Shown here piece by piece: positions 16,839 to 51,935 of a DNA stretch of 64,000 nucleotides. Location: positions 1-64,000 of the forward strand of contig NZ_LVJW01000003.1 in assembly GCF_001708965.1 (NCBI RefSeq), written 5' to 3'. The notes below the pieces were generated by a model. It did not search any database and had not been told where the DNA came from. It was given only the letters and a program-made list of their open reading frames with translations. A program made the position numbers and the translations under genes. The stretch is from Candidatus Thiodiazotropha endoloripes. Its GTDB lineage: Bacteria > Pseudomonadota > Gammaproteobacteria > Chromatiales > Chromatiaceae. Position 1 is the first letter of the stretch. Each line of letters starts with the position of its first letter.

Positions 16839-17356
16839 CGTGCTACCTTCAGTTTGTAGTTGCTCTGAGTGATTGATCTGACCTGAAAAAATCGTAACAG
16901 AGACTTATTCGGTGCGGCTCTCGGTGGTTGTTTATGCTCAGTTTATCGGAACACTTTCCACCATTTTGCATTAACAATCGGACAATGTCTCAGCTGGCTG
17001 TTGATCACCACAGAGATTATCTTTCAGAGTCTGCCGGTGGTCAGTGAGATATGGGGACGGTTACCTCAGTTGCAAGTCCCTCGGGTCAGACTGGATAGAG
17101 ACAGTGGTTGACCTGGGGAGTCTGGAGCCGTTTACTGCCGGGAGTTGATCATTCAAGCGCCAGCTTACGAACCGCCGAGATCTCGGATGTTGGTTAAAGA
17201 CCGCTTCGCTTGCCGTGGATGGCAATACAGCGATAAGCCGGTTGCTGTTTTTTACTGAAGCGGTTTTTCTCTGCAAACGAAACCGATCATTTATAACTTA
17301 CCGTTTTTCTTGGTTTTTGTTTGGTTGGAACGGTTTATTCACCTGAAGGGAAGGTG

Positions 17357-17375
17357 ATTGAACGATTCGTTCAAT
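17357..17375. promoter_or_regulatory. 19-bp palindrome, putative enhancer (UAS), copy A
   Basis: ATTGAACGATTCGTTCAAT is a perfect palindrome around one central base. Its centre is about 188 bp upstream of the -24 GG of the sigma-54-like promoter at 17553. The identical sequence, read toward its own promoter, recurs at 27132-27150 with nearly the same spacing. This geometry fits a binding site for a sigma-54 enhancer-binding protein. A TetR-type operator is the main alternative. Confidence 0.7.
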
Positions 17376-17552
17376 AGGTTGCAACCACACTGTGCTCCGC
17401 ATCCCCCATTCCATTTGTGAGTAGCCCAAAATAGCTACAAATAGGTAGCCAGCTATAACCCTTTGAAAGCCCCGGTTTATCTGCCTGTCACTCGAAAATA
17501 ATCCACAGCTTGAGCGGGCTTTTATCTCACTTTGAATCATATCCGGCGGCCT

Positions 17553-17568
17553 TGGTATAGATCTTGCG
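17553..17568 (+). promoter_or_regulatory. Sigma-54-type -24/-12 promoter for the 12-haem operon
   Basis: TGGTATAGATCTTGCG fits TGGCACR-N4-TTGCW, with GG and GC separated by exactly 10 bases. It predicts a transcript start near 17580 and a leader of roughly 130 nt before the ATG at 17708. Confidence 0.7.
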
Positions 17569-17707
17569 ATTCTGTTGTGTGCGTTATGCGCATGTGCATT
17601 GCAGGGGAGAGCGATGCTGAGGAAGAAAAATTGATGGGGCAGATGCCCGTGTTCGTCGCTTCCGCTGGTCGGATGCAATTTTTAACCATTATATTGGGAG
17701 TCTGATA

Positions 17708-20059
17708 ATGAAACGCCTAGCACTACTTGCAGTAGTGGCGTTGGTTGCTTGGGGAAGCGGAGGCAATACGCTGATCCCTGTAGCTGAGGCCCAAGGCAAA
17801 GCCTGTTTGGCATGTCACGACGGCATAGAACGCTTTAGTGATGGTGTGATGCAGGAAGACATTGAAAAGATGGGTGCAGAATTGGGAGACCCGGCCGGCT
17901 GTGTGGTCTGTCATGGTGGTAACCCGAAAGAAGAAAAAGATAAAATGAAAGCCCATATGGGCTCCCCCGCCGGACTAGCAAAAAAGGGTGGACCTAAAAA
18001 CTTCCTGCCCGATCCTGGCGCCATGCCAGTTAACGACCAAGCCTGTGGCCAGTGCCACTCTGGATACTATGACCGTCTGAATAAATCCCTGATGAATACT
18101 GAGGCAGGTAAACTGCAGGGTAACATGTGGTCATGGGGTTACCAGAAAGACATGAAGGTTGTCTGGGGCAATTATGATGTGATGGATGACGATGGTCCTG
18201 TGCCTCTGGTTGGTACCAAGGCCTACAAGAAGTACATGAAGGACTTCGTCAAGAAGCATCCGGATCAGATGCCGAAGCGTCTGAAACAGCTGCCACAGGT
18301 TGATCTGGAGAAACTGACCGACAATCCCAACCATGCGGGTCTGACCTACTCCCGTCATGATTGTCAGCGTTGTCATGTTGGTGTGACCGGTCGGGATAAG
18401 CGTGGTGACTACCGTGGATCCGGCTGTTCCGCCTGTCACGTGCCTTACTCCAATGATGGCTACTATGAAGGTGGCGATCCAACCATCAAGAAGGACGAAG
18501 CGGGCCATATCCTGACTCACCGCATGCAGGGTACCCGTAAGACCAAAGTCAAGGTTGGTGAAGTTGAGTTCTCCGGTATTCCTGTTGAAACCTGTGTCTC
18601 CTGTCACAACCGCGGAAAGCGTGTTGGCGTGAGCTATCAGGGCATCATGGAAGCACCTTACGGTTCGCCCTTCAATGAAAAGGGTAAGAAGCAGCCTAAG
18701 ATGCACACCAAGCGTTACCTGTTCATCAAGGAAGACCTGCATCATGAGATGAACTCGATTGCCGGTAACCCGCAGGGTGGCATGCTCTGCCAGGACTGCC
18801 ATACCACCATCGATCTGCATGGTGATGGCAATATCCCGGGTACCACCCTGGCTCAGGTCGAGGTCGAGTGTGAAGACTGCCACGGCACCTTCAACAAACT
18901 GCCTTGGGATCTGCCGCTGGGTCGTGGCGAAGAGTTTGGTGAGATGAAAGACGGTCTGCCGACCGCCTACACCAAGCCTCGTGGACTTGGCACGAAGTGG
19001 CCTGAGTACATGAAAGACGCCACTCAGTATGAACCTCAGGATGGTTACCTGCTGACCGCGCGCGGCAATCCTCTGGGTAATGTGGTTAAGAAGGGTAAGG
19101 ACGTTATCGTTCACTCCGCCAACGGTCTGGACTTCAGAGTACCTCTGTTGAAACAGATCGGCGACGAAGGCACCTTCAAGTCGACTCTGGCGAAAGTATC
19201 CATGTTCCTGATCCCACAGCATCAGAACAACATGGAGTGCTACGCTTGTCATGCCGACTGGGTTCCACAGTGCTACGGTTGTCATGTCACAGTTGACTAC
19301 TCGAAAGGCAATGAGGGTACCGACTGGCTGGTCAACGCCAGTAATCGTGATCCCAAGACCGGTCTGACTCCGGATGCGCCTCCTGGCACCAACGGCATGA
19401 AGAGCCCTGGTAAAGTCATGGAGACCCGCTCCTATCTGCGTTGGGAGACTCCGGTACTCGGTATCAATGGTGAAGGTCGCGTCAGCCCGATGATGCCTGG
19501 TTGTCAGGTAACCACGACGGTTATCGACAAAGATGGTAAGACCCTGGTCAACAACAAGATCTGGGAAACACCTGAAGGTCCCGGTATCGATACCGCAGCT
19601 GTACAGCCTCACACCGCTGGCCGTAGTGCCCGTAGCTGTGAGTCCTGTCACGACAATCCAAAGGCATTGGGTTACGGTGTTGAAGGCGGTCGCTTCCTGT
19701 TGGGTGCTGACAAGGACTTCGTACTGGATCTGAAGGACTCTGCCACTGGTAAGATCATTCCTCAGAAGACCCAGGTTCAGATCCCCGGTATCCCCGGTCT
19801 GACCTATGACTGGTCTGCGATTGTTACTGAGGATGGCGAGCAGCTGAGTTCCGTAGGTTCTCACTGGCCGCTGACTGGTCCGTTGCCAGACGATAAGCGT
19901 GATGCCATCGAGAAGACCGGTGTCTGCCTCGGTTGTCACGAAGAGCGTTTCAATCCTGACTTCTGGCAGAAGGTATCCGAACCTGGCGTTATGGATAGCT
20001 TCGAGCACCAGCAGTTCATGAAGAAAGCGCTGAAAGCGATTGCTGCCCAGAAGAAGTAA
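17708..20059 (+). CDS. Periplasmic dodecahaem cytochrome c
   Basis: The 783-residue protein has a signal peptide (cut after AEA, about residue 28) and twelve CXXCH motifs at about 33, 65, 113, 219, 240, 296, 361, 388, 511, 522, 644 and 740. Spacing is irregular, unlike the regular decahaem MtrA repeat. Two motifs are nearly adjacent (ECYACHADWVPQCYGCH). A lone Cys near 599 is not in a haem motif. Likely a periplasmic multihaem oxidoreductase or electron conduit; the substrate is unknown. It is first in an operon with a NapC/TorC-type quinol oxidase, which suggests electron flow between the quinone pool and this protein. A sigma-54 promoter and palindromic UAS precede it. I cannot assign it to a characterised enzyme family. 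Confidence 0.9.
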   Translation: MKRLALLAVVALVAWGSGGNTLIPVAEAQGKACLACHDGIERFSDGVMQEDIEKMGAELGDPAGCVVCHGGNPKEEKDKMKAHMGSPAGLAKKGGPKNFLPDPGAMPVNDQACGQCHSGYYDRLNKSLMNTEAGKLQGNMWSWGYQKDMKVVWGNYDVMDDDGPVPLVGTKAYKKYMKDFVKKHPDQMPKRLKQLPQVDLEKLTDNPNHAGLTYSRHDCQRCHVGVTGRDKRGDYRGSGCSACHVPYSNDGYYEGGDPTIKKDEAGHILTHRMQGTRKTKVKVGEVEFSGIPVETCVSCHNRGKRVGVSYQGIMEAPYGSPFNEKGKKQPKMHTKRYLFIKEDLHHEMNSIAGNPQGGMLCQDCHTTIDLHGDGNIPGTTLAQVEVECEDCHGTFNKLPWDLPLGRGEEFGEMKDGLPTAYTKPRGLGTKWPEYMKDATQYEPQDGYLLTARGNPLGNVVKKGKDVIVHSANGLDFRVPLLKQIGDEGTFKSTLAKVSMFLIPQHQNNMECYACHADWVPQCYGCHVTVDYSKGNEGTDWLVNASNRDPKTGLTPDAPPGTNGMKSPGKVMETRSYLRWETPVLGINGEGRVSPMMPGCQVTTTVIDKDGKTLVNNKIWETPEGPGIDTAAVQPHTAGRSARSCESCHDNPKALGYGVEGGRFLLGADKDFVLDLKDSATGKIIPQKTQVQIPGIPGLTYDWSAIVTEDGEQLSSVGSHWPLTGPLPDDKRDAIEKTGVCLGCHEERFNPDFWQKVSEPGVMDSFEHQQFMKKALKAIAAQKK

Positions 20060-20097
20060 GGGCATGTAGTAAACAGGTGATTATCACCTGATTGGAT

Positions 20098-20122
20098 GGA
20101 GCCAGCCCTCTGGGCTGGCTCC
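20098..20122 (+). terminator. Strong hairpin between 12-haem and 5-haem genes
   Basis: Perfect 11-bp stem GGAGCCAGCCC / GGGCTGGCTCC with a TCT loop, 39 bp after the 12-haem stop. Only a weak T-rich tail (ACTATTTCC) follows, so it may be an attenuator or an mRNA 3'-end stabiliser that sets higher levels of the first gene rather than a full terminator. Confidence 0.6.
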
Positions 20123-20290
20123 ACTATTTCCTTCCCCCTCGATTTGAGCACTGTGATCATCATCTATGCCGATGTTGGTCAGAGAGGCTGCTTGCTTTAC
20201 AGCGCTCTGCCATTGCTCGACAAGAGGTCTTGATGACAAAGTGAATGACAATTCTCGGAATGAATGGCGGAACTAATTGGTAGGAATGTG

Positions 20291-21409
20291 ATGATGAAGA
20301 GAGCTTTCAGTTGGTTGACGCTGGGTGTCGGTATTATCGCCGGCATTATTCTTTGGGGTGGTTTCAACACCTTCATGGAATATACAAATAGTTATGAATT
20401 CTGTACTTCCTGCCACGAAATGAATGTAGTGCAGGGAGAGTATGAGCAGTCGGCTCATGCACATAATCCTTCCGGGGTTCCGGCAATCTGTTCAGACTGT
20501 CATGTGCCAAGACCCTGGGGTGCAAAACTGGTGCGCAAAATCCAGGCGACGAAAGAGCTCTACCATTGGGCTCTGGGTACCATCGATACGCCGGAGAAGT
20601 TTGAAGCCTACCGTCTGCAACTGGCGCAGAATGTCTGGTCGACCATGGAGCAGAGTGACTCCCGTGAGTGTCGCAACTGCCATACCAATGAAACCATGCT
20701 GACGGAAAAGCAGACTTCACTGGCGCAAAAGATGCACAAAAAGCTGTTGAGCGGTGAGCAGACCTGTATCAACTGTCATAAAGGCGTCGCCCACAAACTG
20801 CCGAACATGGAGAAGCTCTATCGTGAGATGGAAGCCGAATATCTGGCTGAGGCACAGAGTGCTCAATTGGGCGATCAAGCGGTGGTATTACCCCATGAAG
20901 TGGCAATGACAGCAACCCCAGGCGGCGACGATCCTCTGGCAACCCTGTATGGCGGTACGCCATTGGCGGTTGTCAAACAGGAGGGGGATTGGGTTCAGGT
21001 AGCAAGCGAAGGCTGGGACAGGGAAGAGGGTAGCCAGATCTTCATCGACTTCAATCGGGCTGTCACACTGGCGAAGATGAGTTTTGACGGCATGGACCGG
21101 ATAGAGAAGATCGAGAGCAAGCTGGAACCTGAATATGAGTTGACCTGGAACCGGATCAAACTCACCGGATGGGTGCCCCGCACGGCGATCGGACCCAGTG
21201 AGGAGCGCTACTGGGATTATGTGACCGATCTCTATGAGCTGGACTGTAACTTATGTCATAAAACCTACTCGCGGGATAAGTGGATCATGTTTGATTGGCG
21301 CAATAACCTGAAGGAGATGCGCCGTTACACCAAGTTGAGCCAGGAGCAGTTACAATTGGTGAGTAACTGGGTGCTGCGTGGTGCACGTAACGATTCGGAG
21401 GCGGATTGA
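20291..21409 (+). CDS. NapC/TorC-type pentahaem cytochrome c
   Basis: The start at 20291 follows TAGGAA and gives the typical NapC N-terminus (MMKRAFSW then a membrane anchor); an upstream in-frame ATG at 20264 lacks a ribosome site. Five CXXCH motifs: four in the NapC/NirT part (CTSCH, CSDCH, CRNCH, CINCH) and one distal (CNLCH near the C-terminus), the TorC arrangement. An SH3-like stretch (LATLYGGTPLAVVKQEGDWVQV) lies between. Such proteins oxidise quinol at the inner membrane and pass electrons to periplasmic reductases. The likely partner is the 12-haem protein. The stop overlaps the next ATG. Confidence 0.9.
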   Translation: MMKRAFSWLTLGVGIIAGIILWGGFNTFMEYTNSYEFCTSCHEMNVVQGEYEQSAHAHNPSGVPAICSDCHVPRPWGAKLVRKIQATKELYHWALGTIDTPEKFEAYRLQLAQNVWSTMEQSDSRECRNCHTNETMLTEKQTSLAQKMHKKLLSGEQTCINCHKGVAHKLPNMEKLYREMEAEYLAEAQSAQLGDQAVVLPHEVAMTATPGGDDPLATLYGGTPLAVVKQEGDWVQVASEGWDREEGSQIFIDFNRAVTLAKMSFDGMDRIEKIESKLEPEYELTWNRIKLTGWVPRTAIGPSEERYWDYVTDLYELDCNLCHKTYSRDKWIMFDWRNNLKEMRRYTKLSQEQLQLVSNWVLRGARNDSEAD

Positions 21410-21990
21410 TGAACAAGCCTGTCGTAACGGCTCTGTTACTCTCGATGATTGGACTCGGTGTCGGACCGGCGTTGGCAAAAGCGGCTGATGAGAACGGCAT
21501 GCAGGCGCAACAGATGCCGATGCCGATGAAACGGAATCACCTGTTTGAAGAGCGGGCGGGAACCTGGAAGGCGACTTGCGATGAGATGGAGCAGAGCAAG
21601 GTCTACTGCCGTATGTTCCATATCGAACAGTTCGGTGAGTGGCAAGCGAAGAATTTTATTCAGGTGGGACCGGCCTGGACGCCCGATTCGGTTGGATTTG
21701 TGGTTGCCACCTATCAGGGTTTCAAAGCCGGAACAACGGTTACCATCGGTATCGATAAACAGAGCCGTCATAAGATCACCGCACCAAAAGGCAACAATCT
21801 GATGATCTCCCCGGATATCACCGCGAAAATCCTCGATGAGATGGAGAAGGGTCATAAGATCGTAGTGACGTTCAATTCTCACAGTGGGGTGCGCCATCTC
21901 ACCCTGGCTGAGTTGGGACCCTATCAAGCGCTGCTGAGCAAAGTAAAAGATCAATTGGCTGGAAACAGTAAGCCAGTGAGTTCTGAATAG
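21409..21990 (+). CDS. IalB-like periplasmic protein
   Basis: The ATG at 21409 shares its A with the preceding stop (translational coupling). The 193-residue product has a signal peptide (cut near ALAKA, about residue 24) and a domain resembling invasion-associated locus B proteins: W-x-A-T-C then YCRMFH, which are the two family cysteines, followed by alternating strands (FVVATYQGFKAGTTVTIGID). IalB-type proteins are periplasmic and their molecular role is uncertain. In this operon it is probably an accessory or assembly factor for the multihaem complex; that is inference from position only. Confidence 0.65.
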   Translation: MNKPVVTALLLSMIGLGVGPALAKAADENGMQAQQMPMPMKRNHLFEERAGTWKATCDEMEQSKVYCRMFHIEQFGEWQAKNFIQVGPAWTPDSVGFVVATYQGFKAGTTVTIGIDKQSRHKITAPKGNNLMISPDITAKILDEMEKGHKIVVTFNSHSGVRHLTLAELGPYQALLSKVKDQLAGNSKPVSSE

Positions 21991-22013
21991 GCATGGATCG
22001 GAGAGGAGGCGTT

Positions 22014-22943
22014 ATGGCTAAATTTATGGCGACAGTCATTGCACTCTGCTTGGGTATGATGACACCGCTGATTGCTGGCGAAATGGATAGCGAACAGACA
22101 TCGCAAAAGAGTTTTCGCGTGGGGGTTACCCAACCGCCCATGTTCACACTGGCATCTGCCCTGGCCTGGGGCAGTCCGGTGGAGGTTGTGTTGGTGGAGC
22201 GGGACCAGAGTGGGGATTGGGATATCCCCACCGGTCTTACCGTACTCTTCTGGAGTGGCGCGACACTGGAGCCTGTGCTTGCCAAGCAGCTGAAAGCGTC
22301 CGATCAGGCCGCTGTTTCACTGATCGATGCGGCTGGTGTACATCAGCTGGCCAAGCGGACTCCGGCAGACTGGAAAGGTCCGAATGAGGATGAAGATCCG
22401 CACATGGAGTCATTGGGTAAAGGGTATGGCATGGTGCAGACGATTCGGCCGGAAGGCATGATCGATACCATGTATTGGCTCGATCCACTGAACGCAATGG
22501 CCGCGCTGGAAGCGATCACCATGGTTTATCAGGGATTGGACCAACGTAACCACTGGGCTTATCAAGGTAACTCGGATCAGATTATTCAGGCCCTGTGGGA
22601 GTTGGATATCCGGGTTAACAAGCTTCTGCATGAAGCCAGCAGTCAGCCGTTTGTGGTCCTGCAGGATGAGTTTCAATACCTTGAACAGCGCTATAAGCTG
22701 CATACGGTCCCTGCCGGTGGAACGGCCCAGGATATCGTCGAGAAAGCCAAGGCCAGAGGGGCTAAGTGTGTGGTGGCGGCAGAACCTTTTGATCAGCATC
22801 TTATGTCGGTGCTGGATCAGGCCGGATTGAACCGGGTGGTTTTGGATCCCGCCGGTCAACAGATGCCGAAAACCACGGGTGGTTATTTTCAGTGGTTTGG
22901 CAATCTGGCCTCCAAACTGAATGATTGTGTGATCCGCTCCTGA
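22014..22943 (+). CDS. ZnuA-like periplasmic binding protein lacking usual metal ligands
   Basis: Start chosen at ATG 22014 after GGAGAGGAGG; an upstream in-frame ATG at 21993 lacks it. About 309 residues with a signal peptide (cut near LIAG). The fold resembles cluster A-I (ZnuA/TroA) solute-binding proteins: FWSGATLEPVL, YWLDPLNAMAALEAI, VVLQDEFQYLEQRYKL, GTAQDIVEKAKARGAKCVVAAEPF. The histidines that normally bind zinc in H-x-WLDP and FHDxxxYF are Met/Tyr (TMYWLDP) and Gln (LQDEFQY). No ABC permease or ATPase is adjacent. It may have been repurposed as a complex subunit or bind something other than zinc. Confidence 0.7.
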   Translation: MAKFMATVIALCLGMMTPLIAGEMDSEQTSQKSFRVGVTQPPMFTLASALAWGSPVEVVLVERDQSGDWDIPTGLTVLFWSGATLEPVLAKQLKASDQAAVSLIDAAGVHQLAKRTPADWKGPNEDEDPHMESLGKGYGMVQTIRPEGMIDTMYWLDPLNAMAALEAITMVYQGLDQRNHWAYQGNSDQIIQALWELDIRVNKLLHEASSQPFVVLQDEFQYLEQRYKLHTVPAGGTAQDIVEKAKARGAKCVVAAEPFDQHLMSVLDQAGLNRVVLDPAGQQMPKTTGGYFQWFGNLASKLNDCVIRS

Positions 22944-23851
22944 TGGATTCGCTGTTACGCATCCTGGCGCTGCTGGGATGTCTCGGGCCACTGGATCTTT
23001 TCTCTGCCTCGTTACCGGTACTGGTGAATGGAGCCTGGCTCTCCGAGAACCGACATGAGGTTGTTGTGCTTGATGTCAGATCCCGTGCCGAATTCATGGC
23101 AGGTCATTGGCCGCAATCCCGCTGGGCCGGTTTCAATGAGCTCGATTGGCAGGTTGAGCGTTACGGACTGCCCGGGTACCTGCCCGGTGAGAATGGACTG
23201 GCAGCTCTATTGGGCAGTCTCGGATTGGCGGGGCAGGAGTCTGTGATTGTCGTCGGATCCGCCAGAGGTCCCAGGCAGATTGCAGAGGCATCGCGTGTTG
23301 TCTGGAGCCTGATGATGGCTGGTTTTCAGCAGGTGGCGCTGTTGGATGGAGGTATTGAGTCTCTCTCCAGTGATGATCTGCAACAGGGTATCTCATCCAT
23401 TGAGGCGAAGCGGTGCACCATCAATTGGCAGCCTGATCTTTTGGCCGACAGCAATCGGGTGGAGGATCTGCTGGACAACAACAGACCGGTAATTGATTTC
23501 CGTCCAAGCCTCTATTTTGATGGCTACAAGCGTAATCCGCAGGTAGCTGAAGGGGGCACGATTTACGATGGTGTGGGGATACCGCCTGTGCGTCTGCTGG
23601 ATAAGAATACCGGGCGGTTCCTGCCAGTGGAGAGACTGCAGCAGGAGTTTCAGCGTTATGACATCCAGACAACAGGGTCACTTGCCGCATTCAGCGATAC
23701 CGGTGTCTGGGCCGCATTGGGTTGGTTTGTGCTGCACCAGATTCTGCAAAACCCGAATGCCCGGCTCTATGATGGCTCCCTGGTGGAGTGGATAGACTGG
23801 GGTGGCGAGATGCATGACAGTACCGATGATATGGGTGGCCCAATCGGTTAA
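22943..23851 (+). CDS. Rhodanese-like two-domain protein without catalytic cysteine
   Basis: The ATG at 22943 overlaps the previous stop by one base. The 302-residue product has a signal-like N-terminus and two rhodanese domains: VVLDVRSRAEFMAGHWPQSRWAGFNELDW (first) and PVIDFRPSLYFDGYKRNP (second). The second active-site loop reads FSDTGVWAA where active enzymes have CxxG; the first loop (VVGSARGPRQIAEASRV) also lacks Cys. It therefore cannot act as a classical sulfurtransferase and may bind a ligand or partner. Fifth gene of the multihaem operon, probably periplasmic. Confidence 0.75.
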   Translation: MDSLLRILALLGCLGPLDLFSASLPVLVNGAWLSENRHEVVVLDVRSRAEFMAGHWPQSRWAGFNELDWQVERYGLPGYLPGENGLAALLGSLGLAGQESVIVVGSARGPRQIAEASRVVWSLMMAGFQQVALLDGGIESLSSDDLQQGISSIEAKRCTINWQPDLLADSNRVEDLLDNNRPVIDFRPSLYFDGYKRNPQVAEGGTIYDGVGIPPVRLLDKNTGRFLPVERLQQEFQRYDIQTTGSLAAFSDTGVWAALGWFVLHQILQNPNARLYDGSLVEWIDWGGEMHDSTDDMGGPIG

Positions 23852-23887
23852 GTTTTTTAACTCAATTCAGATCTGTAGGTAATCAAA

Positions 23888-24676
23888 ATGCGACAGGATT
23901 ACAGCTTGAATGGAAAAAACATCAAACAAATGATTCTCCCACTCATGGGCCTGCTTGTTCTGCCTCTCCTGGCAATGGCGGAAGGGACGCCCTTCGGTTG
24001 GCAGAGAGAGGTCACTGCGCTTGTTTCTCAGCTGCAGTACAAAGAGGCAGGAGAGAAGTTAAAAAGCTACTGTGTGGATGAGAAAAGTGGTGAGCTTTGC
24101 CTGGTTCTGGCCTCTGCCTATTTTGAAGGTGAGATCAAGTTCGGTATTGAAACAAAAGATATCGTTGAAGCCTACAAATATACCAAGCTTGCCTGTGACT
24201 ATGGTTCCGAGTCCGGATGTGAGGCCTATAAAGGGGCTGTTGAGAAGGGGGAGCTGCTTCAATTGGTGCTGTATGAACCTGGCATTGTGGATCGGGGTGC
24301 ACAACTGAAAAAGGCGATCCAACAGGGATTGGATCTGAATGTGACAACCATGTTCAGCAGGACGCTTCTGCAAGAGGCTGTCAGTGAGGAGAAGGGGGAA
24401 GCGGTCAAGTTATTGCTGGAGAATGGAGTGGACGTCAACTATCGGGTCAGTGAAGAGGATCTGACACCGCTCATGTATGCCATCAATACAGGCAATCAGG
24501 AGTTGGTCAAGCAGCTGCTCGAGTATGGTGCTGATGTGAAACAGACGATGATCGCGCCAGACTATCTGAAAATGGAGAAGGACGTTGTGGATGCCTGTGA
24601 TTTTGCCAACAAACTGGAAAAGCGCGAAATGTCAGTGTTGTTGAAGTGTGGCGATAGAACCGTAGCCCAGGAGTAG
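23888..24676 (+). CDS. Secreted ankyrin-repeat protein
   Basis: The 262-residue protein has an N-terminal hydrophobic signal (QMILPLMGLLVLPLLAMAEG, cut near residue 31), a Sel1-like helical part (about 45-115: SGELCLVLASAYFEGE, YTKLACDYGSESGCEAYKGA) and two to three ankyrin repeats (about 150-230: TLLQEAVSEEKGEAVKLLLENGVDVN, TPLMYAINTGNQELVKQLLEYGADVK). It lies 36 bp after the rhodanese-like gene and is probably the last gene of the operon. Ankyrin proteins mediate protein contacts; here it may scaffold a periplasmic complex. It converges on the cytochrome c' gene. Confidence 0.78.
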   Translation: MRQDYSLNGKNIKQMILPLMGLLVLPLLAMAEGTPFGWQREVTALVSQLQYKEAGEKLKSYCVDEKSGELCLVLASAYFEGEIKFGIETKDIVEAYKYTKLACDYGSESGCEAYKGAVEKGELLQLVLYEPGIVDRGAQLKKAIQQGLDLNVTTMFSRTLLQEAVSEEKGEAVKLLLENGVDVNYRVSEEDLTPLMYAINTGNQELVKQLLEYGADVKQTMIAPDYLKMEKDVVDACDFANKLEKREMSVLLKCGDRTVAQE

Positions 24677-24815
24677 GCGAAAATTTCTTCATAAAAATAG
24701 TGAAGGATTACTCACTCATCAGGTAGTCAATCATTACGTTTCATATATTCAGGTATGACAGGGATTGGAATCATCTGTCCAATTGTTGATTGTTGTCTAT
24801 TGGCGCCATCAGTGT

Positions 24816-25253
24816 TCATCGCTCTCTGAAATAGTAGTGACAGTCACCACAACTCATGCGCACATCGTTGACAGCTCGTTTCATTGTTTTCATATCACTT
24901 GGGTCGACCGCTTTAAGCGCCATGATCTTACGGCGATTGTGCTGTATGGCGCTTTGAAACCCTCGTGGATCGCTCCAGATCAGGGCCAGTGCCTCTGACT
25001 CCGGGTGTTGATCCCCGACCGGGAATAGATCCTGATAGATATCATTGAGGTTCAACAATGCATCCACATGGGTTGGGATGTGGTTTTCGATCGACAGTTC
25101 ACCTTTTACATAACCTTGCAGAGCTTTCAGATGATTGGAGGCATTTTCCATGATTCTTGAGCGATAGTGATAGATCTCCTCCACACTGTCATCCGTGGTG
25201 GCAGTGGATGGCAGCAGCATTAAAATCAAACTGAGACGGGCAAGAAGTTTCAT
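24816..25253 (-). CDS. Cytochrome c'-like (class II) cytochrome
   Basis: The 145-residue protein has a signal peptide (cut near residue 20). The body is mainly helical, and the single haem motif is at the extreme C-terminus (SCGDCHYYFRER), the class II cytochrome c' arrangement. These four-helix-bundle proteins bind NO or carry electrons in the periplasm. Last gene of the leftward operon starting at 26837; a dispersed repeat separates it from the TlpA gene, so it may also have its own transcript. NO binding is possible given the denitrification genes nearby, but unproven. Confidence 0.8.
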   Translation of the reverse strand: MKLLARLSLILMLLPSTATTDDSVEEIYHYRSRIMENASNHLKALQGYVKGELSIENHIPTHVDALLNLNDIYQDLFPVGDQHPESEALALIWSDPRGFQSAIQHNRRKIMALKAVDPSDMKTMKRAVNDVRMSCGDCHYYFRER

Positions 25254-25296
25254 GTTTCCTCTTACTGGTTAATTGCAGTAATCAATTGGATTAGTA

Positions 25297-25332
25297 CTAG
25301 GGGCTGTTGGATTAGGGTTAACAGGCCCTAAC
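25297..25332. repeat. Copy 2 of GGGCCTGTTAAC dispersed repeat
   Basis: On the minus strand this reads TTAGGGCCTGTTAACCCTAATCCAA followed by CAGCCCCTAG, nearly identical to the copy at 27215-27250 and sharing its arms with the palindrome at 5531. It sits between the TlpA and cytochrome c' genes. Confidence 0.7.
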
Positions 25333-25337
25333 TGGCA

Positions 25338-25934
25338 CTAACGCAATGTAGCTTCGTTCAAACTCACATCGAGGCAGTTGCTCAGCAACTTCAGGACTGG
25401 CTTGCTTTCCCAATCCACCGCACCGATCAGCATCCCTTTTACCATACCCTGCTGATCGACAAACAGTGTCTGGGGCAGAGCGCCAATCCTGTGGTCGTAG
25501 GAGATTTTACCAAACCGGTCAGCTGCAACCGGCAGATTGGTAATTTCATGGGTTCGATAGAATCGGTTCGCTTGCGAGACACCCTTACCGTCCCGGACCA
25601 GAGGGAGGATCATCAATTTGTCCTGTGAGATGCGAGCCTGAAGCCGATCCATGGATGGCATCTCCTCCCTGCAAGGGGTACACCAGGTAGTCCAGAAATT
25701 GATCAGTAACGCACGTGGGCCGGGGAGCGTATCAAGAGGAACCTTTTGCCCTTCGCTGTTATAAAACGCGTTTCTGGAAACCGGTTTAGGATCGGCATAA
25801 GCACGGAAATGACCGCTTCCGAATGCCTGGCTTTGGCATCCTTGCGGAGCCTGCGGCTCTGCCACCACAGGCCCCGAGATAAGGATAAGTCCAAGCAGGA
25901 GCAGCTGAGTGCTGCGAGGTTTGAAATAAGTCAC
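25338..25934 (-). CDS. TlpA-like periplasmic thiol-disulfide protein
   Basis: The 198-residue protein has a signal peptide (about 1-25) and a thioredoxin fold with the redox motif WCTPC in NFWTTWCTPCREEMPSMDRL, plus the cis-Pro region NLPVAADRFGKISYDHRIGALPQTLFVD. TlpA/ResA/CcmG-type proteins reduce disulfides in the periplasm, for example apocytochrome CXXCH pairs. In a cytochrome operon a role in haem attachment, or in redox of a partner's cysteines, is plausible. Its ATG overlaps the stop of the DUF302 gene by four bases. Confidence 0.88.
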   Translation of the reverse strand: MTYFKPRSTQLLLLGLILISGPVVAEPQAPQGCQSQAFGSGHFRAYADPKPVSRNAFYNSEGQKVPLDTLPGPRALLINFWTTWCTPCREEMPSMDRLQARISQDKLMILPLVRDGKGVSQANRFYRTHEITNLPVAADRFGKISYDHRIGALPQTLFVDQQGMVKGMLIGAVDWESKPVLKLLSNCLDVSLNEATLR

Positions 25935-26368
25935 TGGACGGCTTGCTGTGCCAGCTGCGCGAATATCTGGTCCAGGTCATCCAGCAGGCGGCAATCCTCC
26001 AGGCTGTAGGTGCTGCGCAGAGAGCTGGGTTTGCGGTAGATCACCCGGGTGCCCACATCATCCTGGAATACCGCAATTTTAAGCGGTAACTCCAATCCGG
26101 CGGCGGGGTCGTGCCACATGATGCGCGCATTCTGGTTTGATTTGCCGAATGAGATCACCTTTTTCACAGAGTTTGCATCACCGTGGTCGTAGACAGAAAA
26201 GACTTTGAAACGCTGTTCTGCGAGCTGCTTTTTCAAGCTTTCCACAATCTCGTTGGCAGAGGCCTTGGCTTCGATTTTTACCAGATCACCATCGGCTGCC
26301 AGTAGTGGGGTAATCATTAACAGGGTTAACAATGGGAGTAGGGTAATACCCCTTAGTAAACGGCTCAT
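25931..26368 (-). CDS. DUF302 domain periplasmic protein
   Basis: The 145-residue protein has a signal peptide (LLPLLTLLMITPLLAADG) and a DUF302 domain (about 45-125: SANEIVESLKKQLAEQRFKVFSVYDHG; PLKIAVFQDDVGTRVIYRKPSSL). DUF302 proteins are widespread in sulfur oxidisers, often beside redox and Dsr/rhodanese-type genes, and their function is unknown. Here it lies between a cytochrome c and a TlpA thioredoxin and is translationally coupled to the latter. Confidence 0.85.
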   Translation of the reverse strand: MSRLLRGITLLPLLTLLMITPLLAADGDLVKIEAKASANEIVESLKKQLAEQRFKVFSVYDHGDANSVKKVISFGKSNQNARIMWHDPAAGLELPLKIAVFQDDVGTRVIYRKPSSLRSTYSLEDCRLLDDLDQIFAQLAQQAVQ

Positions 26369-26411
26369 GATTAATGATCTCCTGACTGCTGGATCTTAAA
26401 AATACGGACGA

Positions 26412-26837
26412 TTACTTTAACGACTTCAAGAACTCGATTACGTTCCTGCGTTGCTTATCCGACATCGGTTTCACGCCGACAACAGGAAACGCCATTTTAT
26501 TGTCCGGGATGAGCGCTTTGGGATCCTGCAGATAGGCGTCGAGCGTGGCTTCATCCCAGACGATGGAGTCTGCTTTGCTGAGATGGGCGGCAGAGTATTC
26601 ATAGCCTTCCACTGAACCGGCAGGTTTTCCATACACCCCCCAGAGTGGTGGGCCAACCCTGTTTTGTTTTTCTGCCGTGATATCATGGCAGGCAAAGCAC
26701 TGCTTAATGGCGACTTTTTTCCCCTTTTTCACCATCTTTTTAATCATTTTGGCATCATCCATCGCCATTACTTCAACACTGGCCACCGGTAGGGCAATGA
26801 CAATAGCCAGGGCAATCAGAGCAAACTTCTTCATCAA
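26412..26837 (-). CDS. Class I cytochrome c
   Basis: The 141-residue protein has a signal peptide (cut near VMAMD, about residue 25), one haem motif CFACH (near 47), the RVGPPLWGVYGKPAG loop and a Met axial ligand in NKMAFPVVGV, followed by the C-terminal helix RRNVIEFLKSLK. This is a cytochrome c2/c550-type soluble periplasmic electron carrier. First gene of the leftward operon; a sigma-54-like promoter (26944-26959) and the 19-bp palindrome (27132-27150) lie upstream, mirroring the 12-haem operon. Confidence 0.93.
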   Translation of the reverse strand: MMKKFALIALAIVIALPVASVEVMAMDDAKMIKKMVKKGKKVAIKQCFACHDITAEKQNRVGPPLWGVYGKPAGSVEGYEYSAAHLSKADSIVWDEATLDAYLQDPKALIPDNKMAFPVVGVKPMSDKQRRNVIEFLKSLK

Positions 26838-26865
26838 AAAACTCCTAAAACTGGAAACCTGCTGA

Positions 26866-26887
26866 AGTAGAAACAGAAGTTTCTACT
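26866..26887 (-). promoter_or_regulatory. Hairpin in the leader of the cytochrome c operon
   Basis: AGTAGAAAC (26866-26874), loop AGAA, GTTTCTACT (26879-26887): a perfect 9-bp stem. It lies between the predicted transcript start (about 26934) and the ATG at 26837, so it would be in the mRNA leader. Without a T-run it is not a terminator; it may stabilise the mRNA or bind a regulator. Confidence 0.45.
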
Positions 26888-26943
26888 GAGAAAGTTCCGC
26901 GTATGTGTTTAATACAGTATGGGTTTTGCTAACCTGAGTATGC

Positions 26944-26959
26944 CGCAATATCCATGCCA
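26944..26959 (-). promoter_or_regulatory. Sigma-54-type -24/-12 promoter for the cytochrome c operon
   Basis: On the minus strand, TGGCATGGATATTGCG matches TGGCACR-N4-TTGCW closely, with the required 10-base GG-to-GC spacing. It resembles the promoter at 17553 (shared TGG..AT.GAT.TTGCG). It predicts a leader of about 97 nt before the ATG at 26837. Confidence 0.78.
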
Positions 26960-27131
26960 GCTGAAGTGGATTTTGTCGGTTTCCCGTTGCTGGAATTGGC
27001 TGCTAACGGTAAGGGGCCGATATATGTTTGATAGTTGGGGAATCATCGCCCTAAGTCGTCTCCAGTCTGAATCCTTTCCAGAACGTTTACAGCTGATCGT
27101 TGGCTTGTTGATTGCTTGATAAGGATGTGAA

Positions 27132-27150
27132 ATTGAACGAATCGTTCAAT
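27132..27150. promoter_or_regulatory. 19-bp palindrome, putative enhancer (UAS), copy B
   Basis: ATTGAACGAATCGTTCAAT; its reverse complement is identical to copy A at 17357-17375. Its centre lies about 183 bp upstream (minus strand) of the -24 GG at 26958, compared with 188 bp for copy A. It is also 209 bp before the rightward gene at 27359, which it could influence as well. Confidence 0.7.
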
Positions 27151-27214
27151 CGAAAAGCATGGATATGAACAGACCGTTCCAGAGATTCCGAAGTCAGCAG
27201 TTAAAGAGAGAGTT

Positions 27215-47234: not shown

Positions 47235-48245
47235 TCAGCCAAGAGCCTCTTTGGTGATCTTGACGATGATTGCGGCAACCTTATAGGGATCCGCATTGGA
47301 TGCCGGACGACGATCTTCCAGACGACCTTTCCAGCCATCCTCGACCGTACCAACCGGGATACGAATCGACGCACCACGGTCGGAAACACCGTAGCTGAAC
47401 TGGTCGATGGACTGGGTCTCATGCTGACCTGTCAGGCGCTGTTCATTGTGCGCGCCGTAGACCGCGATACAGGGGCCGACATTCTTGCCGAACTCATCAC
47501 AGATCTTGGTAAAGATCTCTTCATTACCGGCTTCTCGCATCGGGCCATTCGAGAAGTTGGCGTGCATGCCGGAACCATTCCAGTCAGTTTCGCCAAGTGG
47601 TTTGGGGTGCCAGTCGACTGCCAGGTCATATTTCTCGGCAGTGCGCTCCAGCATATAACGAGCCAGCCAGATTTCATCACCGGCGGTTTTCGCGCTCTTG
47701 GCAAAGATCTGGAATTCCCACTGGCCTGCAGCCACTTCAGCGTTGATACCCTCAACGTTCAGGCCGGCTTCCAGACACAGATCCAGATGCTCTTCGATCA
47801 GGTCGCGGTTATAGGCGTTGCGTGCACCGACCGAGCAGTAGTAAGGGCCCTGAGGAGGTGGGTAACCGCCAGCCGGGAAGCCTGGTGGGAGATTGGTAAC
47901 AGGATCCCAGAGGAAATACTCCTGTTCGAAACCGAACCAGAAATCTTCATCGTCATCTTCAATGGTGGCCCGACCATTGGAGGGGTGCGGTGTGCCATCG
48001 GCGTTGAGGACTTCGGTCATCACCAGGTAAGAATTTTTACGCGCCGGATCAGGAATTACCGCGACTGGCTTCAGCAGGCAGTCAGATGCGCTACCCTCAG
48101 CCTGTTCGGTCGAGCTACCGTCAAACGACCACATCGGGCAGTCTTCGAGTTTACCGCTGAAATCGGAGCGGACCATGGTTTTACTTCGCAGGCTCTGGGT
48201 CGGCTTGTAGCCGTCGAGCCAAATATATTCCAGCTTACTTTTCAT
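47235..48245 (-). CDS. glnII: Type II glutamine synthetase
   Basis: The 336-residue enzyme makes glutamine from glutamate, ammonia and ATP. Its length and motifs (WSFDGSSTEQA near the N-terminus, EVAAGQWEFQIFAKSAKTAGDEIW, NGSGMHANFSNGPMREAG, IRIPVGT) mark the GSII (eukaryotic-type) family rather than the 470-residue GSI enzyme. GSII is known in rhizobia, actinobacteria and some proteobacteria. No adenylylation site is visible. A sigma-54-like promoter and NtrC-like sites lie upstream, indicating nitrogen control. Preceded by a leader of about 200 nt. Confidence 0.93.
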   Translation of the reverse strand: MKSKLEYIWLDGYKPTQSLRSKTMVRSDFSGKLEDCPMWSFDGSSTEQAEGSASDCLLKPVAVIPDPARKNSYLVMTEVLNADGTPHPSNGRATIEDDDEDFWFGFEQEYFLWDPVTNLPPGFPAGGYPPPQGPYYCSVGARNAYNRDLIEEHLDLCLEAGLNVEGINAEVAAGQWEFQIFAKSAKTAGDEIWLARYMLERTAEKYDLAVDWHPKPLGETDWNGSGMHANFSNGPMREAGNEEIFTKICDEFGKNVGPCIAVYGAHNEQRLTGQHETQSIDQFSYGVSDRGASIRIPVGTVEDGWKGRLEDRRPASNADPYKVAAIIVKITKEALG

Positions 48246-48461
48246 ACTTTATATATCTCCAAACGAAAGATCAGAATTACGTTTTGGCGTAATGCGATAG
48301 AAATCAATGACGGTAAGTCGTGCAAGATTCCCGGCGGACAACATGGTCATGATCAGGCCTCTCTGAATGCACCAATCGGATTAAGCGTGGAGTGCAGCTT
48401 GTTCCAAAAAGAGCAATGTGCCTGAATATGCCGTCGATCACAGCTAGCGCGATCTCTGAGC

Positions 48462-48477
48462 AGCATCATCCATGCCA
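48462..48477 (-). promoter_or_regulatory. Sigma-54-type promoter of glnII
   Basis: On the minus strand, TGGCATGGATGATGCT fits TGGCACR-N4-TTGCW with 10-base GG-GC spacing and one -12 mismatch (ATGC). It predicts a start near 48450, about 205 nt before the ATG. Confidence 0.65.
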
Positions 48478-48541
48478 CTTTCTGTTTTCATTTTATAAAC
48501 AGCTAGTTAGCAATATTTTGGTGTACCAAATAATTTGGGTG

Positions 48542-48590
48542 TGCACCATAATGAGGCGCATGCGCTTTTTACATGCACTATATTGGTGCG
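48542..48590. promoter_or_regulatory. NtrC-like enhancer sites upstream of glnII
   Basis: TGCACTATATTGGTGCG (48574-48590) closely matches the NtrC dyad TGCAC-N7-GTGCA. A second, imperfect dyad TGCACCATAATGAGGCGCA lies at 48542-48560. They centre about 100 and 130 bp upstream of the predicted start, 31 bp apart, much like the enteric glnA enhancer. Confidence 0.65.
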
Positions 48591-48600
48591 CTGGTGTGTG

Positions 48601-49545
48601 TCACGAGATTTTATTGAGCAAAAGCTTGGGAAGGGACAAAAAGCGGGAAATCAGATAGAAGTAACAGTAGGGGGTATTGTGCAGAATGATACCGAGACTG
48701 CTGTTGCGGAAGATTTTTCTCGATACTGCAAAGCTGATCAACAGCAGTAAGAGGCCAAAGAAGAGGGCTGTCAGATAGGCTTTGCTCAGCAGGGCGCCGA
48801 TAAAAAACAGATGGATCAGTACGAAGACGACAGCGGCGATGGCGACTTTCGACTCCAGAAATCGATGCAAGCCCTGAAAATCACCAATACCATGCCATAT
48901 CTCCCGTTTACAGAATTGCAGCAGGGTTTTTGGGAAGCCATCGTGTATGGATTGCAGCTCCCTGTCTATGTTGATTTGAGCGCCTCGGTTGCGTCCTCTG
49001 ACGCAAAACTCAAAGTCTTCACCGGTACTCAACGCTTCATCGAATCCACCGATCTTGTCGAAGCTTGTCTTGCTTAAAATCAGGTTGCCGCCATTGATGT
49101 AGGTCACCTCTTTCTCCGAAAGTGGCTCGAACCAATATTTATCCAGATTGCTTGGGTTTTCCGGGATCATGTAACGTGATCCTGTGATCATGTAGTGGTC
49201 GCGGATCTCCGGATAACGTTGCTTCATTGTTACTGCCCAGCTCCGGGTCAGACGAACATCCGCATCGATGAATGCGATTACATCGGCGGCAGCAGTAGCA
49301 GCGCCAATGTTTCGTGCCTTGGAGATGGAGTCTTTAGGAATTTTGACCAGGTGTGTGCCTGCTTGTTGTGCCAGCTCTGCTGTGTCATCGGTTGAACCGT
49401 TATCCACCACAATAATCTCGAGATCCAGGTCATACAGATTATGACGAATGGATTCGATCAGGTTGCCGAGATGCGCCGTTTCATTGTACGCAGGGATCAC
49501 GACGGAAAGATCTGGTTGCCTCCTGGGCGCGTTGTCACTTGGCAT
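48601..49545 (-). CDS. Family 2 glycosyltransferase, membrane-anchored
   Basis: The 314-residue GT-A fold enzyme: LSVVIPAYNETAHLGNLIESI start, VVDNGSTDDTAELA nucleotide-sugar loop, and the metal-binding DADV in IAFIDADVRLTRSW, then GGFDEALSTGEDFEFCVRG. Two C-terminal hydrophobic segments (about 235-285) anchor it in the membrane. It transfers a sugar to a lipid or polysaccharide acceptor; donor and acceptor unknown. No polysaccharide cluster surrounds it in this window. Confidence 0.88.
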   Translation of the reverse strand: MPSDNAPRRQPDLSVVIPAYNETAHLGNLIESIRHNLYDLDLEIIVVDNGSTDDTAELAQQAGTHLVKIPKDSISKARNIGAATAAADVIAFIDADVRLTRSWAVTMKQRYPEIRDHYMITGSRYMIPENPSNLDKYWFEPLSEKEVTYINGGNLILSKTSFDKIGGFDEALSTGEDFEFCVRGRNRGAQINIDRELQSIHDGFPKTLLQFCKREIWHGIGDFQGLHRFLESKVAIAAVVFVLIHLFFIGALLSKAYLTALFFGLLLLLISFAVSRKIFRNSSLGIILHNTPYCYFYLISRFLSLPKLLLNKIS

Positions 49546-50867
49546 ATCGATAGGCTGTCAGTGAATAGTGCACTGGGTACAGTGTTGAGATGAGCGCTAG
49601 TTTAACGTAATTACCGAATCTAATCATCTTTATGGAAAGGCTTATAAATAGTTGGTTTACACATGAAATATCGTACTCAAGTGGGATGAATTGGCTGTTT
49701 TATTAGCGACCGGAATATGAAGCTTAAAGATGAAACGGAGTTAAGTTCTGAGGCCAGTGACAGTGTCTCTTCAGGTGACTGTGTGGCCTTATATTTACCA
49801 AATAGTTATAGCATTGGAGAGAGTATCAGGATCCCGGCTTAATGTATTTATAGTGTATGGCTGTTATGAAATCTAGTGGAGGGATTTATTCATCCAGTCC
49901 TGGAATCTGCAGCGTCATTGCGCTTTGTTTTGCTTTGTTTTGGTAGGGTAATCAAGCTTACTTATGATTTTCACAGAAGTGGTGTAGTAGGCCTTGGTCG
50001 GAGTCATTGGGTCATTGAGAATGGTTGTTACAGTATTTAAACGGTGTTGCCAGTCATGCTGTGGTCGTTACAGGTCGAAATTTTTGTTTGCCTGGATCCA
50101 TCCTCGTCTATCAGATAGTCCTATCTGAATCTCCTTTGCGAGTGGTCAAGGAGAGGTTTGCCTGAGCGGTTTGCAATTGAATTGACGCTATCTTTTGCTG
50201 CAGATTGTTACCCTGAAGATCAGCTCTTATGATTTGTTAATTTTCGTTAATTGTTACAGCCTGAAGTGGTGGATTTGTCTTGAACTGTCGACTGGCACTC
50301 ATCTGCGGAGAATTAATAATAGTCTGTTCTTACATTGGTTTGTTTGTGGAATGATTGTCAGGATAGGAATTTAAATACTAAAAGATGATTGAATCTCCTC
50401 AACTACTGACACTTTTATTGAGGTTGTTTTACAACAGAAACTAGAATGAGAGAGGTTAAAAATCATACGGGTAAAGGTGCTGGCGACCGTTTTGTCTTCC
50501 GCGAAAGTCACTGACTGATGTGGATCGACTACTAAAAAAACCTAAACCACAGTGCTGACACCATCTGGTTAAGTTTGATTCTTTTAATCAGAAATCGCCA
50601 ACTGAACAGGCGGTCATTTGTTATATATGGTCTTTGCTACACGTAAGATAGGTCGATCGCAGGATCTGCATAGAGTGATGCGTGTGATGAGCTGTTGGGT
50701 GGGGCAGTGTTTCTGGAATTGTGTCGCAATTTGCGTGATCTGGTTAGATTGGGTTATAGCGTGCTAACCGATTCATAGAGCCCTGCAGCAAGAATCAATT
50801 ACTGATAGACAATCAGATTTGCAGCATAAATAATGGCAGAAACAGTAGAGTTGGTATTGGGGTGGTA
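49546..50867. other. 1.3-kb gene-free, AT-richer region
   Basis: No ORF with coding character on either strand. Visible items are a short TTTGTTTTGC direct repeat near 49925-49942 and an 8-bp inverted repeat TCAGATAG / CTATCTGA at 50111-50128. It may hold decayed genes or an unrecognised ncRNA. No tRNA cloverleaf, CRISPR or IS ends were recognised. Confidence 0.4.
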
Positions 50868-51902: not shown

Positions 51903-51935
51903 AGAGGTGCTCTTTTTTCAAACGTGCCAGGCAGG

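What the first reader, a model, noticed from the sequence alone, without database searches (positions are those of the whole stretch)
17357..27150. Two convergent cytochrome operons share a 19-bp palindrome and sigma-54 promoters at matched spacing
ATTGAACGATTCGTTCAAT occurs at 17357-17375 and, identically on the opposite strand, at 27132-27150. Each copy lies upstream of a -24/-12-type promoter with exact GG-N10-GC spacing (17553-17568 and 26944-26959). Centre-to-GG distances are about 188 and 183 bp. Two copies with matching orientation, promoter type and distance are unlikely by chance and imply one enhancer-binding protein co-inducing both operons. No such regulator is in the window.
Basis: partly seen in the sequence, partly recalled or inferred. 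Interest (0 to 1): 0.88.

Follow-up and report, generated by a model that had tools for sequence, protein, structure and literature searches.

The report
Two-component sigma-54 regulon of cytochromes
Two neighbouring sets of electron-carrier genes in a bacterium close to the clam symbiont Thiodiazotropha carry the same control signal, and the switch protein that most likely reads it can be named from the genomes of its relatives; this is a new example of a familiar kind of gene control.

Summary
The 19-bp dyad occurs exactly twice in the genome at up to 2 mismatches. Each copy lies 183-188 bp upstream of a GG-N10-GC sigma-54-type promoter of two convergent cytochrome operons. The inference of one shared enhancer-binding protein is well supported, and I can name the candidate: an NtrC-type response regulator ("RR") with a partner histidine kinase on another contig (G000:C6:418066-419439). 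Among 28 testable family genomes with the dodecahaem cytochrome gene, 12 of 13 with RR have dyad plus promoter upstream of it, against 0 of 15 without RR. In five relatives RR and the cytochrome gene share one locus; in three the dyad lies directly between them. Of seven RR-bearing genomes of other families, five carry dyad plus promoter near RR (11 hits; 0-1 for shuffled palindromes). A weaker second dyad sits 32 bp upstream of each window copy; other promoter sets prefer 41 bp. RR also appears to control an unrelated haem-protein cluster. No binding or transcription was measured. The kind is known; my searches showed no description of this regulator, site or regulon.

The parts
17357..17375 (+). 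primary dyad (upstream activating site) of the multihaem-cytochrome operon, 9+1+9 bp
   Evidence: conserved at the same operon in G063, G150, G163 (1 mismatch), G188 and G037 (1 mismatch)
17325..17343 (+). weaker second dyad TTGGAACGGTTTATTCACC, 32 bp upstream, 11 of 18 positions
   Evidence: offset -31/-32 is the best offset in the six-promoter set, 3.0 and 2.9 sd over background
17553..17568 (+). sigma-54-type -24/-12 promoter TGGTATAGATCTTGCG
   Evidence: a GG-N10-GC site 187-196 bp from the dyad centre in 6 of 6 promoters of the set (own genome, four of the genus, G037)
17708..20059 (+). 783-aa cytochrome with 12 CXXCH motifs, distant relative of ExtM
20264..21409 (+). NapC/NirT-TorC-like membrane cytochrome, 381 aa
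   Evidence: PF03264 E 1.3e-67; TorC models below cut-off
21406..21990 (+). 194-aa protein without a family match
21993..22943 (+). ZnuA-like periplasmic metal-binding protein, 316 aa
   Evidence: PF01297 E 3e-23
22925..23851 (+). rhodanese-like protein, 308 aa
   Evidence: PF00581 E 4.4e-10
23888..24676 (+). ankyrin-repeat protein, 262 aa, last gene of the + operon
   Evidence: PF12796; operon membership inferred from order and spacing
27132..27150 (-). primary dyad of the cytochrome c550 operon
   Evidence: conserved in G063, G150, G163, G188
27164..27182 (-). weaker second dyad, 32 bp upstream in the sense of the operon, 11 of 18 positions
   Evidence: offset -32 is the best offset in the six-promoter set, 4.0 sd over background
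26944..26959 (-). sigma-54-type -24/-12 promoter TGGCATGGATATTGCG
   Evidence: a site 182-186 bp from the dyad centre in 5 of 6 promoters of the set, none in G037
26412..26837 (-). cytochrome c550-like protein, 141 aa
   Evidence: PF00034
25931..26368 (-). DUF302 protein, 145 aa
   Evidence: PF03625
25338..25934 (-). TlpA/ResA-like thioredoxin, 198 aa
   Evidence: PF00578
24816..25253 (-). cytochrome c-prime, 145 aa
   Evidence: PF01322

Best explanation
The dyads are upstream activating sites of one NtrC-type two-component system encoded elsewhere in the genome: the RR at G000:C6:418066-419439 (-), with a PAS-containing histidine kinase gene just upstream of it. Inferred mechanism: the kinase senses an unknown, probably redox or respiratory, signal and phosphorylates RR. 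RR oligomerises over the tandem dyads at 17325-17375 and 27132-27182. It contacts sigma-54 RNA polymerase at the -24/-12 sites about 185 bp downstream by looping, and ATP hydrolysis by its GAFTGA-bearing AAA+ domain opens both promoters. The dodecahaem-cytochrome operon and the c550/DUF302/TlpA/c-prime operon are thereby induced together. Shown: the sites, their conservation, the presence and domain make-up of RR, kinase and RpoN, and the co-occurrence and linkage of RR with the dyad. Inferred: binding, phosphorylation, activation and the signal.
For: Only two copies in the genome. Of the 19 near-matches of the looser core motif in the genome, only these two score above 14 of 18 and face a GG-N10-GC site from an intergenic place. 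Both sites are conserved with promoter and spacing in the genus. Of 16 family genomes with a match at up to 2 mismatches, 13 have it upstream of RR-type targets, and all 13 have RR. Cytochrome promoters with at least 400 nt upstream: RR+ 12 of 13, RR- 0 of 15, Fisher p 4e-7 without correction for kinship. The RR label needs 5 changes on the cytochrome tree, 4 forced by supported branches, so this is not one inherited event. Within genus g42, G110, G145 and G187 have RR and dyad while G042 has neither. Same-locus linkage of RR and cytochrome gene in G145, G097, G009, G024 and G110. RR has REC, Sigma54_activat and Fis-type HTH domains; its recognition-helix motif SRPRLRR is in 39 of 39 RRs read and in none of the 15 other strong activators of the genome. 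Seven RR genomes of other families: 11 dyad-plus-promoter hits against 0-1 for 12 shuffled palindromes. rpoN present.
Against: No binding or expression data. RR is unlinked to both operons in the window's own genome. Cytochrome homologues are common without RR and without the dyad, so RR is not needed for the operon in general. G030 has RR but only a 13 of 18 dyad. G037's second operon has a 15 of 18 dyad but no promoter match of 8 of 11 or better. G420 has a 17 of 18 dyad and G245 a 15 of 18 dyad, both without a promoter match of 9 of 11 within 40-260 bp. The genome has 16 strong sigma-54 activators and I did not profile the other 15 against the dyad. The thresholds were set after a first look at the same promoters.
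Confidence: 0.86

Rival explanations
1. The dyad is the operator of a different regulator, for example a TetR-type repressor or another of the 15 sigma-54 activators, and RR merely travels with it.
For: TTGAACG-N3-CGTTCAA resembles short TetR-family operators (recalled, no call). The genome has 15 other strong sigma-54 activators.
Against: Cytochrome promoters carry the dyad with RR and lack it without RR, and an unrelated HEAT/bd-like cluster that contains RR also carries it (HEAT clusters without RR were not tested). RR lies directly beside dyad and target in G145, G097 and G009. The distance to -24/-12 sites and the tandem 32/41-bp phasing fit an enhancer better than an operator over the promoter.
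Confidence: 0.1
2. RR binds the dyads but also acts through overlapping sigma-70 promoters, or as a repressor, so that sigma-54 activation is not the whole story.
For: TGGYAYNNNNNYTGC by itself is only about 3.7 times over expectation in the window. Some dyads (G420, G245, G037 second operon) lack a good sigma-54 match nearby.
Against: A GG-N10-GC site of at least 8 of 11 at 116-243 bp from the dyad centre is present in 13 of 13 RR+ cytochrome promoters read, the G030 dyad being only 13 of 18. RR carries GAFTGA.
Confidence: 0.08
3. The two copies are chance or a small mobile or structural repeat without a regulatory role.
For: A short identical inverted pair flanking 9.8 kb could be a repeat.
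Against: Expected 0.02 in the window at up to 3 mismatches. Only two copies genome-wide. Conserved at homologous promoters between species.
Confidence: 0.01

Closest known systems
NtrC and its tandem glnA enhancer (sites about 32 bp apart; recalled, no call)
   Same: Response regulator with REC, AAA+ (GAFTGA) and Fis-type HTH; tandem dyads upstream of a -24/-12 promoter
   Different: RR scores 403.3 against the 558.6 cut-off of the NtrC model TIGR01818; its dyad TTGAACGAwTCGTTCAA differs (NtrC's own site recalled); targets are cytochromes
AtoC and ZraR response regulators
   Same: Same architecture; next-best NCBIfam models
   Different: 400.4 against cut-off 714 and 388.6 against 760
ExtM, 12-haem cytochrome of the Geobacter ext selenite/tellurite cluster (PMC5877670, passages read)
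   Same: 12 haem motifs, profile similarity E 1.2e-66, a rhodanese-like gene in the cluster
   Different: 225 bits against cut-off 800; ExtN and ExtO models match only inside the cytochrome itself, below cut-off, and no other operon protein matches a porin or Rieske model
Desulfovibrio vulgaris sigma-54 regulome reconstructed by comparative genomics (PMC4641369, passages read)
   Same: Same logic: activator gene linked to operon, conserved palindromic site, sigma-54 promoter
   Different: Other organism; TTGAACG and CGTTCAA have 0 occurrences in its text

Membership tests
sigma-54-dependent promoter | GG-N10-GC -24/-12 elements | tested here: met
sigma-54-dependent promoter | element conserved at homologous operons | tested here: met
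   6 of 6 cytochrome promoters and 5 of 6 c550 promoters of the genus-type set
sigma-54-dependent promoter | RpoN encoded in the genome | tested here: met
   one PF04552 match, E 3e-70
sigma-54-dependent promoter | transcript starts there and depends on rpoN | not testable with these tools
   needs 5'-end mapping and a mutant
NtrC-type enhancer-binding response regulator | receiver domain, sigma-54 interaction AAA+ domain with GAFTGA, Fis-type HTH | tested here: met
   PF00072, PF00158, PF02954; GAFTGA in the own translation and exactly in 34 of 39 RRs read
NtrC-type enhancer-binding response regulator | partner histidine kinase gene adjacent | tested here: met
   HisKA, HATPase_c, two PAS and PF21623 sensor domain
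NtrC-type enhancer-binding response regulator | binds the upstream dyad | tested here: inconclusive
   co-occurrence and linkage only
NtrC (nitrogen regulator NR-I) proper | curated cut-off of TIGR01818 | tested here: not met
   403.3 against 558.6 bits
ExtM equivalog | curated cut-off of NF040943 | tested here: not met
   225.3 against 800 bits

The most novel reading that the evidence does not exclude
A previously undescribed two-component system, present in at least eight gammaproteobacterial families, keeps one DNA code (TTGAACGAwTCGTTCAA, recognition-helix motif SRPRLRR in 39 of 39 read). It has been plugged into unrelated haem-protein respiratory modules: a dodecahaem cytochrome operon, a c550/DUF302/TlpA/c-prime operon, and a bd-like/ethylbenzene-dehydrogenase-haem/MauG and HEAT/PCP_red cluster. 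This implies one common respiratory signal, with tandem sites held at three (32 bp) or four (41 bp) helical turns.
Probability: 0.6. Interest if true: 0.58.

Novelty: new member of a known kind. Interest (0 to 1): 0.46.

Why it matters
It turns a two-copy palindrome into a named regulator, partner kinase, binding code and regulon that can be tested directly. It links an uncharacterised, very conserved dodecahaem cytochrome of a lucinid-clam symbiont genus to a sensory input. The same regulator apparently drives a second, unrelated haem-protein cluster in other lineages, which offers a handle on what both modules respire or detoxify. The signal and the substrate remain unknown.

Tried and rejected
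Mobile or common repeat: rejected, two copies only. More members of the regulon in the own genome: the core motif TTGAAYRNNNYRTTCAA with up to 1 mismatch has 19 places against 4 for the backwards control. Besides the two window sites, three of the other 17 have a weak GG-N10-GC match (8 of 11) nearby, all three inside open frames of 575-767 aa, so none was accepted. One search had checked four of these places (L281-L284) at a wrong position; one search corrects this. IHF sites in the loop region: 1-mismatch hits in both own promoters, shared only with G063 at the cytochrome promoter; inconclusive. PDB relatives of the cytochrome by sequence: none at E up to 0.01. AlphaFold model of the cytochrome: mean pLDDT 30, not used, and no fold search made. 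A first look at the recognition helix used a filter that was circular for some rows; one search repeats it by BLAST hit alone. Literature: no paper with both 'Thiodiazotropha' and 'multiheme cytochrome'. Searches showed no described regulon of this kind in their listings, which are capped; only passages of PMC6712303, PMC5877670 and PMC4641369 were read. Promoter intervals of the HEAT set were chosen by me, so primary dyads there are selected; the -41 tandem offset was not selected for. Of 28 RR+ genomes without the cytochrome gene, 21 had a HEAT promoter scored. Not scored: G005, G025, G060, G190, G192 (short contigs or stretch not held), G152 (HEAT gene not found in the fetched stretch) and G173 (contig ends near its 15 of 18 dyad).
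Full report
What is there. The 19-mer ATTGAACGATTCGTTCAAT is a perfect 9+1+9 dyad at 17357-17375 (+) and 27132-27150 (-), and there is no other copy at up to 2 mismatches in the 4.46-Mb genome. Both copies face a GG-N10-GC site (TGGTATAGATCTTGCG at 17553-17568; TGGCATGGATATTGCG at 26944-26959) at 188 and 183 bp from centre to GG. The promoter pattern alone is weak evidence, 5 hits against 1.35 expected in the window. A weaker dyad lies 32 bp further upstream of each copy, at 17325-17343 and 27164-27182.

The operons. The + operon encodes a 783-aa cytochrome with 12 CXXCH motifs, a NapC/TorC-like cytochrome, a protein without family, a ZnuA-like binding protein, a rhodanese-like protein and an ankyrin protein. 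The - operon encodes a c550-like cytochrome, DUF302, a TlpA-like thioredoxin and cytochrome c-prime. The nearest named relative of the large cytochrome is ExtM, well below its cut-off (225 against 800 bits). PMC5877670 (passages read) describes ExtM as a 12-haem protein of the Geobacter ext cluster. A close relative of the window is Candidatus Thiodiazotropha endoloripes: G063's contig length of 1221007 equals that of LVKA01000008.1, and its operon genes are 90-99% identical.

Conservation. Among 194 genomes of the GTDB family (drawn from a larger group), 16 have the 19-mer at up to 2 mismatches; the backwards control has none in the listed rows. In three of these (G091, G126, G192) the match lies inside a long open frame; I treat these as chance. 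In the genus, G063, G150, G163 and G188 keep dyad plus promoter at both operons. In a separate collection, 80 cytochrome loci from named records include three further Thiodiazotropha-like assemblies (L181, L182, L186); all three carry the exact dyad, and two of the three also a promoter match of 9 of 11 or better.

The regulator. In G150, G163 and G188 a third exact copy lies just downstream of a gene for an NtrC-type response regulator. Its orthologue in the window's genome is G000:C6:418066-419439, 79% identical, with receiver, sigma-54 interaction and Fis-type HTH domains. A histidine kinase gene with PF21623 sensor domain, two PAS, HisKA and HATPase domains lies just upstream; the next gene looks like ptsP (named from recall). 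RR is one of 16 strong PF00158 proteins. RpoN is encoded once. RR is present in 42 of 194 family genomes. The 13 genomes whose dyad lies upstream of RR-type targets all have it. The recognition-helix motif SRPRLRR is in 39 of 39 RRs read and in none of the other 15 strong activators of the genome.

Co-occurrence test. The dodecahaem cytochrome gene is in 31 of 194 family genomes: 14 with RR, 17 without. Thirty of these loci were read and 28 had at least 400 nt upstream: G181 and G155 are cut by contig ends, and G083, a fragment, got no locus. With the rule dyad of at least 14 of 18 and a promoter-like site of at least 8 of 11 within 60-260 bp, RR+ gives 12 of 13 and RR- 0 of 15 (Fisher p 4e-7, kinship not corrected). 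The thresholds were set after a first look at these promoters. The exception, G030, has a 13 of 18 dyad; at a threshold of 13 the counts are 13 of 13 and 1 of 15. One RR- genome, G111, is only 62% complete. Three hundred shuffled palindromes reach 14 of 18 in a mean of 0.16 of the 13 RR+ promoters; the largest value, 12, is a shuffle that reproduced the real motif, and the next (8, 7, 5) share 14 of its 18 letters. On the cytochrome tree (29 family rows and 4 others) the RR label needs 5 changes, at least 4 forced by supported branches; the tree program warned of long branches between the two cytochrome types.

Linkage. Kinase, RR, dyad, promoter and cytochrome lie in a row in G097 and G145; in G009 RR, dyad and cytochrome lie on one short contig. 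In G024 and G110 RR is within about 3 kb of the cytochrome gene. In G181 two dyads 40 bp apart follow RR at a contig end, while the cytochrome gene begins at another contig's end, which fits the same order but does not prove it.

Second target. In most RR+ genomes without the cytochrome whose neighbourhood was read, kinase and RR are the last genes of a cluster: HEAT-repeat protein, a 247-aa protein, Usp/PCP_red, radical SAM/PCP_red, FAD oxidoreductase, kinase, RR. A bd-like subunit, an ethylbenzene-dehydrogenase-like haem protein with cytochrome c domains and MauG-like proteins are encoded divergently. Their shared intergenic regions carry dyads and sigma-54-type sites, often in both directions. 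Of 21 HEAT promoters scored, 19 have a promoter match within 20-260 bp of the best dyad. HEAT clusters without RR were not tested.

Tandem sites. Scanning the score of a second dyad at every offset gave best offsets of -31/-32 (cytochrome promoters, 6, 3.0 and 2.9 sd), -32 (c550 promoters, 6, 4.0 sd), +41 (other cytochrome promoters, 7, 4.7 sd) and -41 (HEAT promoters, 21, 6.7 sd). These are about three and four helical turns, as expected for side-by-side dimers of an enhancer-binding protein. Related promoters are not independent, so the sd values are descriptive. The pooled 40 primary dyads give consensus ATTGAACGA-N-TCGTTCAAT with half-site TTGAA nearly invariant.

Independent test. A class-level draw of 274 genomes gave RR in 8: the own one and seven genomes of seven other families. 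In the 14 stretches around these seven RRs, 11 dyads of at least 14 of 18 have a promoter match of at least 9 of 11 within 40-260 bp, against 0-1 for 12 shuffled palindromes. Some of the 11 overlap or are tandem. They fall in 5 of 7 genomes. G420 has a 17 of 18 dyad next to its kinase gene and G245 a 15 of 18 dyad at L292:11241, both without such a promoter. Conversely, in 9 genomes with the cytochrome from other groups (Shimia, Roseibium, Tropicimonas, Photobacterium and others) RR was not found at E up to 1e-100 (the same regulator family was found by this kind of search), and their 500 bp upstream of the cytochrome score at most 12 of 18.

Verdict. What is new is the named regulator, its binding code and a wider regulon. 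The kind, a two-component sigma-54 activator with tandem upstream sites, is textbook. No binding, transcript or mutant evidence exists here.

Noticed in passing
L048:8968-9397, L049:930-1362, L053:9200-9518 (G188, G163, G150): Third regulon site downstream of RR: tandem dyads 34 bp apart, a CGGCAC-type sigma-54 site, then about 200 partly conserved bases with a conserved micro-ORF of about 30-42 aa (core RMKTSAGRFLKRWLAEQRRSTKAEE in G188; a 9-nt gap in G150 keeps the frame) and a terminator-like hairpin. No dyad of 14 of 18 or better is near RR in the window's genome. Possibly a sigma-54-dependent small protein, or a relic of an RR-dyad-cytochrome order.
   Followed up: partly
L060, L062, L127-L143, L161-L177: Conserved cluster of bd-like subunit, ethylbenzene-dehydrogenase-like haem/cytochrome c protein, MauG-like proteins, HEAT protein, Usp-PCP_red, radical SAM-PCP_red (heme-b-synthase-like) and protoporphyrinogen-oxidase-like protein ending in this kinase and RR; function unknown.
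   Followed up: partly
window 17708-20059: The dodecahaem cytochrome is far more conserved within the genus than its operon partners (95-96% against about 75-84% in G150, G163, G188) and is 91% identical in another genus (G037) but only about 57-61% in the other family genomes that have it, which suggests strong constraint or transfer.
   Followed up: no
window 48001-52000: GC content drops to 0.445, the lowest of the sixteen 4-kb steps (others 0.487-0.581).
   Followed up: no
L144:7278-11157 (G007): Genes that look by their first residues like a NiFe hydrogenase small and large subunit and its cytochrome b follow RR directly; named from recall.
   Followed up: no
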